Shown here: piece by piece, positions 8,530 through 23,736 of the stretch
How the letters are laid out: each line of letters starts with the position of its first letter
How positions within the stretch are numbered: position 1 is the stretch's first letter
From: Ralstonia pickettii
Lineage (GTDB): Bacteria > Pseudomonadota > Gammaproteobacteria > Burkholderiales > Burkholderiaceae
DNA: 64,000 nt
Assembly (NCBI RefSeq): GCF_001699815.1
Contig: NZ_MCGB01000057.1
Span: 496,001-560,000 of the forward strand
Reading direction: 5' to 3'
The notes under the pieces: model-generated
The model's input: the letters and a program-made list of their open reading frames with translations, nothing else
What the model was told of the DNA's origin: nothing
Databases searched by the model: none
Program-made: the position numbers and the translations under genes

Positions 8530-8544
8530 GCAAGAGCCATACCA
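8530..8544 (-). promoter_or_regulatory. sigma-54 promoter for cytochrome c-550
   Basis: The minus strand reads TGGTATGGCTCTTGC, matching the -24/-12 consensus TGGYAYG-N4-TTGC with correct spacing. It is about 45 bp upstream of the c-550 start. Confidence 0.75.
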
Positions 8545-8619
8545 AGGCGCGAACCTGCCGCCAAACCCGGCCTGCATCCGCCAAGCGCGCCGGTTATCCG
8601 ATGCGAGGGTTGGCACAGG

Positions 8620-8667
8620 TGCTCAGGAATGCAACACCCTGGCAAGGGTCTTGCTTCATGGCGCAAC
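8620..8667. promoter_or_regulatory. two copies of the shared 19-bp upstream activator element
   Basis: TGCTCAGGAATGCAACACC (8620-8638) and TCTTGCTTCATGGCGCAAC (8649-8667) each match 14 of 19 positions of the element seen before the alcohol (17470) and aldehyde (23718) dehydrogenase promoters. They lie 75-140 bp upstream of the c-550 sigma-54 promoter, in the same orientation as at the other promoters, a typical enhancer position. They also lie just upstream of the activator gene itself. Confidence 0.55.
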
Positions 8668-8751
8668 ACTTCCGGTTCGCACCCTGGTTAAATCAGGCGA
8701 TCCGGGCGACCCGCACACAGATTGCGGGCGAGGTTTAAGGAGACACACACC

Positions 8752-10770
8752 ATGACCCCTCACGCGGCAGCCGACCCGCGCGGTTCCGAAAACGCCCCGG
8801 CCACGCTCGGTGACACCCCGAACGATCAGCCTGAACTGATCGCGCAATCCCACGAGCGATCCAAGTCCTACGGCTTGCGCCCGTATGAGTCGCCCGACTT
8901 CTGCCCGGTCCTGCACAGCGAGCTGAAAACCGAGATCGAGCGCAGCCAGTCGCTGTTCACGCACGCGCTCCCCGTGATGGAGACGCTCTACAGCCAGATC
9001 GTCAACACGCAAAGCATGGTGATCCTGACCGACACGTCTGGCCTGATCCTGCATTCGCTGGGGGACGACGATTTCCTGGCCCAGGCGAGCAAGGTGGCCC
9101 TTCAACCGGGCGCGCTGTGGTCGGAAGCGAGCCGGGGCACCAACGCCATCGGCACGGCGCTGGCCGAGGCTAAACCCACGCTGGTCCACGGCTCCGAGCA
9201 CTACCTGCAGGCCAATCAGTTCCTCACCTGTTCGTGTGCGCCGATCTTCGATCCGTACGGCGCCACCGTGGGTGCGCTCGATGTGACGGGGGACCATCGC
9301 GGTTTCCACAAGCACACCATGGCGCTGGTGCGCATGTCGGCGCAGATGATCGAGAATCACTTGTTTGCCAACACGTTCCAGGACGTGGTGTGCATCCACT
9401 TCCACTCGCGCCCGGAATTCATCGGCACACTGGTCGAGGGCATTGCGGCCTTCACGCCGGCGGGGCGCTTCCTGTCGGCCAACCGCAGCGGCGAATTCCA
9501 GCTCGGCCTGTCGATCCGCGCGCTGCATGCCCATACCTTTTCGTCGCTGTTTGGGCTGTCGATGTCGCAGTTGATCGACCGCGAACGCACCGCAGCGGCA
9601 GGTATCGTGCAGTTGCAACTGCCCAGCGGCGTGAAGGTGTTTGCGCGCGTCGAATGGAAGCGGCCGGCCAACCGCATGGTGGGCGGCGCGATTGGCGCTG
9701 ATCTCTCGACTGACCGCGACGCGGCGCCGCGCCGGGCCTACATCGAGCCGATCCGGCAGCCGGCCAGCCTGGAGGCGCTGGACACCGGCGACGCGCAGAT
9801 CCAGACCGTCATTGGCAAGCTGCGCAAGGTTATCGGCAAGGATATCCCTGTCATGATCCTGGGCGAAACCGGCACGGGCAAGGAGCTGCTTGCGCGCGCC
9901 ATCCACGCCGACAGCCCGCGCCACGCCGGCCCCTTCATCGCCGTGAATTGCGCGTCGATTCCGGAAGCGCTCATCGAATCTGAACTCTTCGGCTACGAAG
10001 AAGGCGCCTTTACCGGCGCGCGCAAGAAGGGCGGCATCGGCAAGATGGTGCTGGCCAACGGCGGCACGCTCTTCCTCGACGAGATCGGCGACATGCCGCT
10101 GCACCTGCAGGCCCGCCTGCTGCGCGCATTGCAAGAGCGTGCGGTCTCTCCGCTGGGCAGCAACAAGCTGATCCAGGTAGATGTGACGGTCGTGTGCGCC
10201 ACTCACCGCAACATGCGCGAGATGGTGGCCAGCGGCCAGTTCCGCGAAGACCTGTACTACCGGCTCAACGGTCTGGTCGTGCGCCTGCCGGCATTGCGCG
10301 AGCGCAGCGACCTCGACGTGGTAGCCGACAAGCTGCTGAAACTTGAACAGGCCGACGCGCCCCCCATCAGCGAAGCCGTGATGCAGATGTTCCGCAGCTA
10401 CCACTGGCCCGGCAACATTCGCCAGCTCGGCAATCTGCTGCGCACCGCCCGGCTGATGGCCGAAGGCGCTCCGGAAATCACCGAAGACCATCTGCCCGAC
10501 GATTTTCTTGAAGACTGGCAGGCGCGTCATGGCGACCAGCCGTCTCCGGACAATGCGGTGGCATCGGCAGCGGCTGTACCGCCTGTCACTCAAAACGTGG
10601 GCGGCACGCAGCCCAAGCGGCTTGCCGATGTGGAAAGCATGACGATCATGGCGGCCGTGCAGGCGCACAACGGCAACATTTCCGCCGCTGCGAAAGCGCT
10701 CGGCATTTCGCGCAACACAATCTACCGCCGGATCGACGAGGCCGGCGGCTTGCCTTCAGACACCGACTGA
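8752..10770 (+). CDS. AcoR-type sigma-54-dependent transcriptional activator
   Basis: A 672-residue bacterial enhancer-binding protein. A GAF-type sensory region (residues ~70-210) contains SRGTNAIGTAL, typical of AcoR-like activators. The AAA+ domain has Walker A GETGTGKE (371-378), the sigma-54 contact loop GAFTGA (418-423) and Walker B GGTLFLDEIGDM (437-448). A Fis-type helix-turn-helix closes the protein (GNISAAAKALGISRNTIYRRI). The start at 8752 has AAGGAG upstream. It is divergent from the cytochrome c-550 gene. Strong -24/-12 promoters before the dehydrogenase, cytochrome and aldehyde dehydrogenase genes make this the obvious activator, probably sensing an alcohol, aldehyde or acetoin-like effector. 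The effector is not predictable. Confidence 0.9.
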   Translation: MTPHAAADPRGSENAPATLGDTPNDQPELIAQSHERSKSYGLRPYESPDFCPVLHSELKTEIERSQSLFTHALPVMETLYSQIVNTQSMVILTDTSGLILHSLGDDDFLAQASKVALQPGALWSEASRGTNAIGTALAEAKPTLVHGSEHYLQANQFLTCSCAPIFDPYGATVGALDVTGDHRGFHKHTMALVRMSAQMIENHLFANTFQDVVCIHFHSRPEFIGTLVEGIAAFTPAGRFLSANRSGEFQLGLSIRALHAHTFSSLFGLSMSQLIDRERTAAAGIVQLQLPSGVKVFARVEWKRPANRMVGGAIGADLSTDRDAAPRRAYIEPIRQPASLEALDTGDAQIQTVIGKLRKVIGKDIPVMILGETGTGKELLARAIHADSPRHAGPFIAVNCASIPEALIESELFGYEEGAFTGARKKGGIGKMVLANGGTLFLDEIGDMPLHLQARLLRALQERAVSPLGSNKLIQVDVTVVCATHRNMREMVASGQFREDLYYRLNGLVVRLPALRERSDLDVVADKLLKLEQADAPPISEAVMQMFRSYHWPGNIRQLGNLLRTARLMAEGAPEITEDHLPDDFLEDWQARHGDQPSPDNAVASAAAVPPVTQNVGGTQPKRLADVESMTIMAAVQAHNGNISAAAKALGISRNTIYRRIDEAGGLPSDTD

Positions 10771-23573: not shown

Positions 23574-23640
23574 GGGTTGTCTCCTGATGTTTGAGTGATG
23601 ACCGCAGCGTCGTTGTCTGCGCTGTGTCCGGTCGTCATCT

Positions 23641-23655
23641 GCAAAACCCGGGCCA
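23641..23655 (-). promoter_or_regulatory. sigma-54 promoter for aldehyde dehydrogenase
   Basis: The minus strand reads TGGCCCGGGTTTTGC, fitting -24/-12 (TGGCMCG-N4-TTGC). It is about 68 bp upstream of the start codon. Confidence 0.75.
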
Positions 23656-23717
23656 TCCCCTGCGGTGGATGTTCGATCCACTCCCATCGCTTGTTCACGC
23701 CGATCGGCCGGCCTGAC

Positions 23718-23736
23718 TGTTCCAGAATGGAACAAC
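23718..23736. promoter_or_regulatory. shared 19-bp upstream activator element
   Basis: TGTTCCAGAATGGAACAAC contains the perfect dyad TGTTCC-N5-GGAACA and matches 15 of 19 positions of the element upstream of the alcohol dehydrogenase. It lies between two divergent promoters, about 65 bp from the aldehyde dehydrogenase -24 element and about 70 bp from a weaker plus-strand candidate, so it could serve both. Confidence 0.65.

What the first reader, a model, noticed from the sequence alone, without database searches (positions are those of the whole stretch)
8530..23736. A 19-bp element shared by three sigma-54 promoters defines an alcohol-oxidation regulon
TGTTGCGAAATGGAGCAAC (17470) and TGTTCCAGAATGGAACAAC (23718) match at 15 of 19 positions. 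Two weaker copies lie at 8620 and 8649. Each lies about 50-140 bp upstream of a good -24/-12 promoter (17375, 23641, 8530), always in the same orientation. The AcoR-type activator gene at 8752 is adjacent. This gives a specific model: one activator, one operator and at least three target units (alcohol dehydrogenase with cytochrome, aldehyde dehydrogenase, PedF with binding protein).
Basis: partly seen in the sequence, partly recalled or inferred. Interest (0 to 1): 0.75.

Follow-up and report, generated by a model that had tools for sequence, protein, structure and literature searches.

The report
Alcohol-oxidation gene switch and its operator
A bacterium appears to switch on its alcohol-burning machinery (enzymes, electron carrier, cofactor synthesis and probably a porin) through one activator protein that recognises a short mirror-image DNA element placed, mostly in pairs, in front of the genes; this is a new, well-conserved example of a known kind of gene switch.

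Summary
The unit is a 17-bp dyad (about TGYTSMR-N3-YKSARCA), not 19 bp, and comes in pairs: exaC/soxYZ (23718, 23740), PQQ alcohol dehydrogenase (17470, 17441), pedF/activator (8620, 8652). A matrix from these six finds further conserved sites upstream of pqqA (11130, 11149, inside a hydrolase gene) and of a porin (26557, before a sigma-54 core at 26691). In congeners 94 of 102 operator columns are invariant against 208 of 482 others. Outside the genus 13 of 19 chosen upstream regions carry the element (random regions: mean 0.17, max 2). In congener G013 exaC keeps a sigma-54 core but has another activator next door and no operator. So: one AcoR-type sigma-54 activator, one dyad, at least four promoters, probably six or seven. 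An AcoR-ExaC link and rpoN1-dependent growth on ethanol were published for Ralstonia solanacearum; my paper searches showed no report of this operator or wider regulon. Binding is untested.

The parts
8752..10770 (+). AcoR-type sigma-54 activator (672 aa): GAF, sigma-54 AAA+ domain, Fis-type HTH_8
   Evidence: Pfam; ORF; GAFTGA in consensus
8620..8636 (.). operator 1, pedF/activator (TGCTCAGGAATGCAACA)
   Evidence: 18.6 or more in 12 of 12 aligned congeners
8652..8668 (.). operator 2, pedF/activator (TGCTTCATGGCGCAACA); overlaps the -12 end of the 8640 core
   Evidence: 15.8 or more in 12 of 12
8529..8544 (-). sigma-54 core for pedF (TGGTATGGCTCTTGCA)
   Evidence: 10/12 in 12 of 12 congeners
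8640..8655 (+). sigma-54-like core toward the activator (TGGCAAGGGTCTTGCT)
   Evidence: 11/12 in 12 of 12 congeners; cores toward the activator in 4 of 12 outside loci (L049, L078, L079, L081)
7999..8484 (-). pedF, cytochrome c550
   Evidence: TIGR04494 211.6 bits, cut-off 122
7022..7942 (-). pedG-like periplasmic binding protein, downstream of pedF
   Evidence: PF00497
11130..11146 (.). operator TGTTCAATTTCTGAACA inside the hydrolase gene (10756-11700, -), 674 bp upstream of pqqA
   Evidence: not in the matrix's training set; 18.1 or more in 12 of 12 congeners
11149..11165 (.). operator TGTACCAGGCTGCAACA, partner of 11130
   Evidence: not in the training set; 14.2 or more in 12 of 12
11695..11710 (+). 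tentative sigma-54 core for pqqA (GGGCATGGATGTTGCC, 9/12)
   Evidence: identical in 12 of 12 congeners; overlaps the hydrolase start codon, so its conservation is partly explained otherwise
11804..11878 (+). pqqA
   Evidence: ORF sequence; tblastn to relatives
12022..12939 (+). pqqB (PF12706); pqqE-like radical SAM/SPASM gene at 13826-15073
17470..17486 (.). operator 1, alcohol dehydrogenase (TGTTGCGAAATGGAGCA)
   Evidence: 18.8 or more in 10 of 10 congeners
17441..17457 (.). operator 2, alcohol dehydrogenase (CGTGCCATACCGCAACA)
   Evidence: 15.6 or more in 10 of 10
17374..17389 (-). sigma-54 core for the alcohol dehydrogenase (TGGCACGGGATTTGCC)
   Evidence: identical in 10 of 10
15552..17306 (-). 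PQQ-dependent alcohol dehydrogenase with the WDFDGVNE motif
   Evidence: TIGR03075; PDB comparison
23718..23734 (.). operator A, exaC/soxYZ (TGTTCCAGAATGGAACA)
   Evidence: 20.9 or more in 10 of 10 congeners
23740..23756 (.). operator B, exaC/soxYZ (TGTTGCAAAGCTCAACG)
   Evidence: 16.6 or more in 10 of 10
23640..23655 (-). sigma-54 core for exaC (TGGCCCGGGTTTTGCA)
   Evidence: identical in 10 of 10 and in C. metallidurans L157
22053..23573 (-). exaC, acetaldehyde dehydrogenase
   Evidence: NF050026 943.7 bits, cut-off 900
23807..23822 (+). sigma-54-like core for soxYZ (TGGCATGACTTTCGCA)
   Evidence: 10-11/12 in 10 of 10
23859..24635 (+). SoxYZ-like carrier; two metallo-beta-lactamase-fold genes follow to 26549
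   Evidence: PF13501, PF08770, PF00753; start codon
26557..26573 (.). operator, porin (TGCTCCATGGCTGAACA)
   Evidence: not in the training set; 13.6 or more in 10 of 10 congeners
26691..26706 (+). sigma-54 core for the porin (TGGTACGCATATTGCA)
   Evidence: 10-11/12 in 10 of 10
26811..27941 (+). Gram-negative porin
   Evidence: PF13609

Best explanation
The element is the upstream activating site (enhancer) of the AcoR-type sigma-54 activator at 8752. The unit is a 17-bp dyad (7-3-7, half-site near TGTTSCR; the same overall geometry as the NtrC box, recalled), present as pairs at exaC/soxYZ, at the alcohol dehydrogenase, at pedF/activator and upstream of pqqA. Shown: the sites, their position (centre 59-126 bp upstream of the -24/-12 cores of pedF, dehydrogenase, exaC, soxYZ and porin), their conservation, their recurrence with related activators. 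Inferred: an alcohol or its aldehyde is sensed by the GAF domain, activator dimers on the paired sites assemble the AAA+ hexamer, DNA loops to sigma-54 RNA polymerase, and pedF(-pedG), the PQQ alcohol dehydrogenase, exaC, soxYZ with two metallohydrolases, pqqA and a porin are switched on together. Inferred: operator 8652-8668 lies over the -12 end and expected start of a sigma-54-like promoter facing the activator gene, so the bound activator probably limits its own synthesis while activating the divergent pedF promoter.
For: Sites and cores, kept in every aligned congener (10 of 10 for exaC, dehydrogenase and porin, 12 of 12 for pedF/activator and the hydrolase pair). 94 of 102 operator columns invariant against 208 of 482 other columns (two of the six operators, 17441 and 23740, were picked by eye from the same alignments, so partly circular). 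Sites not used in training: 11130, 11149, 26557. Outside the genus 13 of 19 upstream regions in 12 loci that I chose have a site >=12.5; random regions of the same loci mean 0.17, max 2 in 1000 draws. Variovorax sp. WS11 has a site plus core before exaC, pqqA and the alcohol dehydrogenase, and a site beside the pedF core. Site-plus-core pairs: 6 of 28 loci classed as relatives against 1 of 52 loci of other sigma-54 activators. G013 keeps exaC (95%) and a core but has a different activator type beside it and no operator; G008 has no match to activator, dehydrogenase (E 1e-100) or exaC (E 1e-200). Two sigma-54 genes in the genome. rpoN1 is needed for growth on ethanol in R. solanacearum and AcoR is predicted to regulate ExaC (PMC4676750, passages).
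Against: No binding or expression data. Six of 19 outside regions lack a site (L157 pedF remnant, a 33-bp region; L079 activator; L082; two of L050; L044), and the regions were listed after one search had shown the sites. One of 300 dyad-permuted matrices reached 14 regions. Most of the 28 loci classed as relatives (22) have no pair. The loose pattern occurs exactly at 9 further places in the genome (14 in all), none upstream of a nearby core. A second activator on contig C53 (54% identical) has similar sites at its own promoter, so cross-binding is possible. The pqqA core is weak and 530 bp from its operators. A near-perfect site also occurs beside a Bacillus relative (L089), so the motif may belong to a wider AcoR-like class, not to this regulon alone. 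G013 is one case in a fragmented assembly.
Confidence: 0.85

Rival explanations
1. The dyads are bound by the paralogous activator on contig C53 (54% identical), alone or together with the window's activator, so that there are two overlapping regulons.
For: The paralogue has an HTH with almost the same recognition stretch (GVSRNRIYRK against GISRNTIYRR) and its own paired dyads TGTTTCGTTGCAGAACA / TGTTCCGTTACGGATCA beside a sigma-54 core facing a sugar-dehydrogenase-like gene and further pqqB- and pqqE-like genes.
Against: Of the 15 congeners only G002 has a second match of about this identity (53%; matches at E 1e-100 or better), whereas the window's operators are kept in 10 of 10 or 12 of 12 aligned congeners.
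Confidence: 0.08
2. The dyad is a generic motif of the AcoR class; control of exaC, pedF and the dehydrogenase is real, but the pqqA, soxYZ and porin sites are chance or serve other promoters.
For: Similar dyads stand before exaC in 14 of 29 exaC loci of other Burkholderiales, 6 of them among the 14 loci where no activator was found within the flank held, and in Bacillus sp. ISL-34. The pqqA core is weak (9/12) and far from its operators.
Against: pqqA has a site upstream in G027, Paraburkholderia and Variovorax and in G007; the stretch over the operator pair holds the most codon-conserved windows of the hydrolase gene (0.97-0.98 against median 0.73); porin site and core kept in 10 of 10 aligned congeners, the site also in G001 and G012.
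Confidence: 0.2
3. The similarity of the two 19-mers is chance or a leftover of duplication.
For: The loose 17-bp pattern with up to 1 mismatch has 178 hits in the genome against 61 for the reversed control, so loose dyads are not rare.
Against: The strict pattern is unique to these two places; conservation and recurrence; flanks of the two sites do not look alike (by eye).
Confidence: 0.01

Closest known systems
AcoR-ExaC of Ralstonia solanacearum GMI1000 (Rsc3129/Rsc3128), PMC4676750
   Same: An AcoR-like activator predicted to regulate exaC; rpoN1 required for growth on ethanol (passages read).
   Different: One pair only; no operator and no wider regulon in the passages read. In congener G013 the activator next to exaC is only about 35% identical to the window's, so the published AcoR may be that other type; GMI1000 was not compared.
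BmoR / P_BMO of Thauera butanivorans (PMC8899819)
   Same: Alcohol-responsive sigma-54 activator with an upstream inverted repeat (passages read).
   Different: Controls a butane monooxygenase promoter; site put 193 bp upstream of the -24/-12 boxes, and the promoter also worked without its hairpin; site letters not seen, so the motif was not compared.
AdhR of Clostridium beijerinckii (PMC7017808)
   Same: GAF/PAS, AAA+ and HTH sigma-54 activator of alcohol dehydrogenase genes with several upstream sites, each needed (passages read).
   Different: Alcohol synthesis in a fermenter; three sites per promoter; motif not compared.
ped cluster of Pseudomonas (PMC12997753)
   Same: Same kinds of parts: PedF, PedG, PQQ alcohol dehydrogenases, SoxYZ-like carrier, metallohydrolase, pqq genes (passages read).
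   Different: Control there runs through AgmR, PedS/PedR and other kinases; the text has no AcoR or rpoN (0 occurrences), though it lists the sigma-54-dependent CbrB among higher-level regulators.

Membership tests
sigma-54-dependent promoter | -24 GG and -12 GC in a core near TGGCACG-N4-TTGCW (consensus recalled) | tested here: met
   17374-17389, 23640-23655, 8529-8544, 8640-8655, 26691-26706, 23807-23822 score 10-11 of 12; pqqA 9 of 12
sigma-54-dependent promoter | sigma-54 present in the organism | tested here: met
   two PF04552 genes in G000
sigma-54-dependent promoter | transcription lost without RpoN | not testable with these tools
   only a relative's growth phenotype in print (PMC4676750)
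AcoR-type sigma-54 activator (enhancer-binding protein) | GAF + sigma-54 AAA+ + Fis-type HTH | tested here: met
   PF01590, PF00158, PF02954
AcoR-type sigma-54 activator (enhancer-binding protein) | GAFTGA loop contacting sigma-54 | tested here: met
   GAFTGA in the alignment consensus; G418 A419 F420 G422 A423 invariant
AcoR-type sigma-54 activator (enhancer-binding protein) | control of acetoin catabolism (acoABC) | not tested
   aco genes were not sought; the neighbours identified are alcohol-oxidation and pqq genes. No NCBIfam equivalog cut-off was reached in the 25 rows shown
AcoR-type sigma-54 activator (enhancer-binding protein) | binds paired dyads upstream of its promoters | tested here: inconclusive
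   sites conserved, recurrent, and missing beside another activator type; no binding assay
lanthanide-type PQQ alcohol dehydrogenase (PedH-like) | second Asp two residues after the first in WDxD | tested here: met
   WDFDGVNE as in 6zcv/6zcw, against WDFSGNNE in 1flg; that this Asp marks lanthanide use and that 6zcv/6zcw are PedH is recalled
lanthanide-type PQQ alcohol dehydrogenase (PedH-like) | activity needs a lanthanide | not testable with these tools
   -

The most novel reading that the evidence does not exclude
One AcoR-type activator is the master switch of a complete periplasmic PQQ alcohol-oxidation system (a lanthanide-type dehydrogenase, its cytochrome, aldehyde dehydrogenase, helper proteins, porin and the PQQ cofactor pathway) in much of the Burkholderiales, in place of the two-component circuits of Pseudomonas; it limits its own synthesis through an operator over its own sigma-54 promoter, and the pqq enhancer pair is written inside the coding sequence of a neighbouring hydrolase gene.
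Probability: 0.45. Interest if true: 0.55.

Novelty: new member of a known kind. Interest (0 to 1): 0.42.

Why it matters
It gives a defined operator, a target list and a natural test case (another activator next to exaC) for how Burkholderiales control PQQ-dependent alcohol oxidation, which in Pseudomonas is described as run by a different kind of circuit. It also supplies parts for alcohol-responsive sigma-54 biosensors and a testable case of an enhancer lying inside a protein-coding gene.

Tried and rejected
A 19-bp element: rejected, because the last two letters vary among congeners. The register at 8649: rejected (7.8 against 15.8 at 8652). An earlier count gave 8650-8666 for that operator; 8652-8668 is right. 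In one search the soxYZ query was cut one codon short at its start; the ATG is at 23859. The dyad at 11744 (10.8): not conserved. The TonB receptor-propeller-cytochrome b561 genes as a target: no site of 7 or more between 17487 and 23717, so not supported as a direct target. Nine other exact genome matches to the loose pattern: none has a sigma-54 core of 9 or more placed 20-250 bp downstream; cores lie elsewhere within 500 bp in L058, L060 and L064, none in the other six. A 22-bp reading of the second dehydrogenase site: its outer arm is not conserved. Operator against activator type: the 15 flanks with an activator are 31-44% identical to the window's, so that table does not test the link. 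In one search one query (p23871down) was translated in the wrong frame and was dropped; its rows mean nothing; no sigma-70-type site in 8480-12040; the hairpin after pqqA that I saw by eye is not in its list. Searches for the motif letters showed nothing relevant in their listings.
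Full report
OBSERVATION. The two 19-mers lie at 17470-17488 and 23718-23736 and agree at 15 of 19 positions. The pattern that covers both, with up to 3 mismatches, is found 3 times in the window against 0.07 expected, and with up to 2 mismatches only at these two places in the 5.24-Mb genome.

WHAT THE ELEMENT IS. I fetched the syntenic stretch from 12 congeners, two of them only in part (genes located), and aligned the three promoter regions (exaC and dehydrogenase 11 sequences, pedF/activator 13, window included). 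The conserved unit is 17 bp, two 7-bp arms around 3 bp, and each region has two: exaC 23718-23734 and 23740-23756 (centres 22 bp apart), alcohol dehydrogenase 17470-17486 and 17441-17457 (29 bp), pedF/activator 8620-8636 and 8652-8668 (32 bp). Operator columns are invariant at 94 of 102 positions, other columns of the compared stretches (sigma-54 cores left out) at 208 of 482 (Fisher p about 8e-22). Scored one by one, both sites of each region are kept in every aligned congener (lowest score 15.6) and so are the cores.

MORE TARGETS. A matrix from the six sites finds three strong sites it was not trained on: 11130 (19.2), 11149 (14.6) and 26557 (15.4). In 52 control loci the rate is 1.02 per 64 kb at 14.5 or more and 0 hits at 19 or more. 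26557 lies 126 bp upstream of a sigma-54 core at 26691 (11/12) that precedes a porin gene; in 10 of 10 aligned congeners the site scores 13.6-19.3 and the core 10-11 of 12. 11130 and 11149 lie inside a hydrolase gene, 674 and 655 bp upstream of pqqA, and are kept in 12 of 12 congeners. Codon conservation there: the best 12-codon windows of the gene lie in codons 173-190 (same-codon fraction 0.97-0.98), which span most of the pair and a short tail next to it; the best window elsewhere has 0.89, the median is 0.73. The operator codons alone average 0.88, because at one codon the window differs from all relatives compared. In relatives without a gene in between, a site stands before pqqA: G007, G027, Paraburkholderia L079, Variovorax L080. 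The pqqA core at 11695 is only 9 of 12, overlaps the hydrolase start codon and is 530 bp from the operators; this promoter is tentative. The exaC pair also faces a divergent core at 23807 toward a SoxYZ-like carrier and two metallo-beta-lactamase-fold genes. A core at 8640 (11/12) faces the activator itself, with operator 8652-8668 over its -12 end. Cores facing the activator were seen in 4 of 12 outside loci (L049, L078, L079, L081) and in G007 (L045).

LINK TO THE ACTIVATOR. The protein at 8752 has GAF, sigma-54 AAA+ and Fis-type HTH domains and the GAFTGA loop. Twelve of 15 congeners have a close orthologue (87-96% identity), G007 a 59% one, G008 and G013 none at E 1e-100. Outside the genus I listed 19 upstream regions of targets or activator from 12 loci of my choice, after one search had shown the sites; 13 have a site of 12.5 or more. 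Regions of equal length placed at random in the same loci give a mean of 0.17 and never more than 2 in 1000 draws; of 300 dyad matrices with permuted columns one reached the observed number. The six misses are a 33-bp region beside a pedF remnant in L157, the L079 activator, L082, both L050 regions and L044. Of the 80 loci found by an activator alignment (a capped list), site-plus-core pairs occur in 6 of the 28 I classed as relatives and in 1 of the 52 others. The classing was by how much of the protein matched; one of the 28 (L101) matched only over residues 331-665, and 22 of the 28 have no pair.

A NATURAL TEST. G013 has exaC at 95% identity with a sigma-54 core (11/12), but the activator next to it is about 35% identical to the window's, and the region between them has no site above 7.9. 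G013 has no match to the dehydrogenase at E 1e-100. G008 has no match to activator, dehydrogenase or exaC. This ties the dyad to the activator type. It is one case, in a fragmented assembly. In G007 the exaC upstream region lies beyond the contig end, so it could not be checked.

WIDER DISTRIBUTION. Of 399 genomes of the order, 111 have exaC at E 1e-150. Of the 29 best loci besides the window, 14 have a site of 12.5 or more within 450 bp upstream, against about 0.6 expected from the control rate. Several best hits below the threshold are dyads with changed arms (such as TGTGTCATTTCGTGACA). In 14 of the 29 no activator was found in the flank held.

MECHANISM. Shown: sites, spacing, conservation, recurrence. 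Inferred: inducer (alcohol or aldehyde at the GAF domain), hexamer assembly on paired sites, looping, co-activation of pedF-pedG, dehydrogenase, exaC, soxYZ, pqqA and porin, and self-limitation through 8652-8668.

KNOWN OR NEW. For R. solanacearum GMI1000 an AcoR-ExaC pair was predicted and rpoN1 is needed for growth on ethanol (PMC4676750, passages). BmoR (PMC8899819, passages) and AdhR (PMC7017808, passages) show that sigma-54 activators control alcohol-linked promoters. The Pseudomonas ped review (PMC12997753, passages) describes the same kinds of parts under other regulators and does not contain AcoR or rpoN. Passages of PMC6615313, PMC8784404 and PMC3162934 gave no operator to compare. 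The listings of my searches showed no paper giving this operator or this wider regulon; most listed papers were not opened, and the library lacks most subscription journals. I file it as a new member of a known kind.

Noticed in passing
15552-17306: The PQQ alcohol dehydrogenase is closest to 6zcv/6zcw and has WDFDGVNE, the Asp recalled as the mark of lanthanide-dependent enzymes, and it is the only match in the genome at E 1e-60. A TonB-dependent receptor (19178-21799) lies upstream; lanthanide uptake is a guess.
   Followed up: partly
11130-11184: A conserved operator pair inside a protein-coding (hydrolase) gene, in the stretch with the strongest codon conservation of that gene.
   Followed up: yes
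L047 3637-11152 (G000 contig C53): A second AcoR-type activator with its own paired dyads and sigma-54 core, facing a sugar-dehydrogenase-like gene and pqqB- and pqqE-like genes.
   Followed up: partly
L167 2891-5039: In congener G013 exaC is next to a different AcoR-type activator and lacks the dyads: apparent exchange of regulator.
   Followed up: partly
11976-11991: A conserved sigma-54-like string TGGCCGACTTCTTGCT between pqqA and pqqB, after what looks by eye like a hairpin terminator; no operator nearby.
   Followed up: no
L089 7746-7785: Bacillus sp. ISL-34 has TGTTCCATATTGGAACA and TGTGCCAATATGAAACA upstream of a sigma-54 core beside a related activator: the motif may be old in the AcoR class.
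   Followed up: no
26599-26615: A possible second, weaker porin operator (TGTCCCGCCACGCTACA, 8.2; second-best hits of 8.2-11.4 in the congeners).
   Followed up: no
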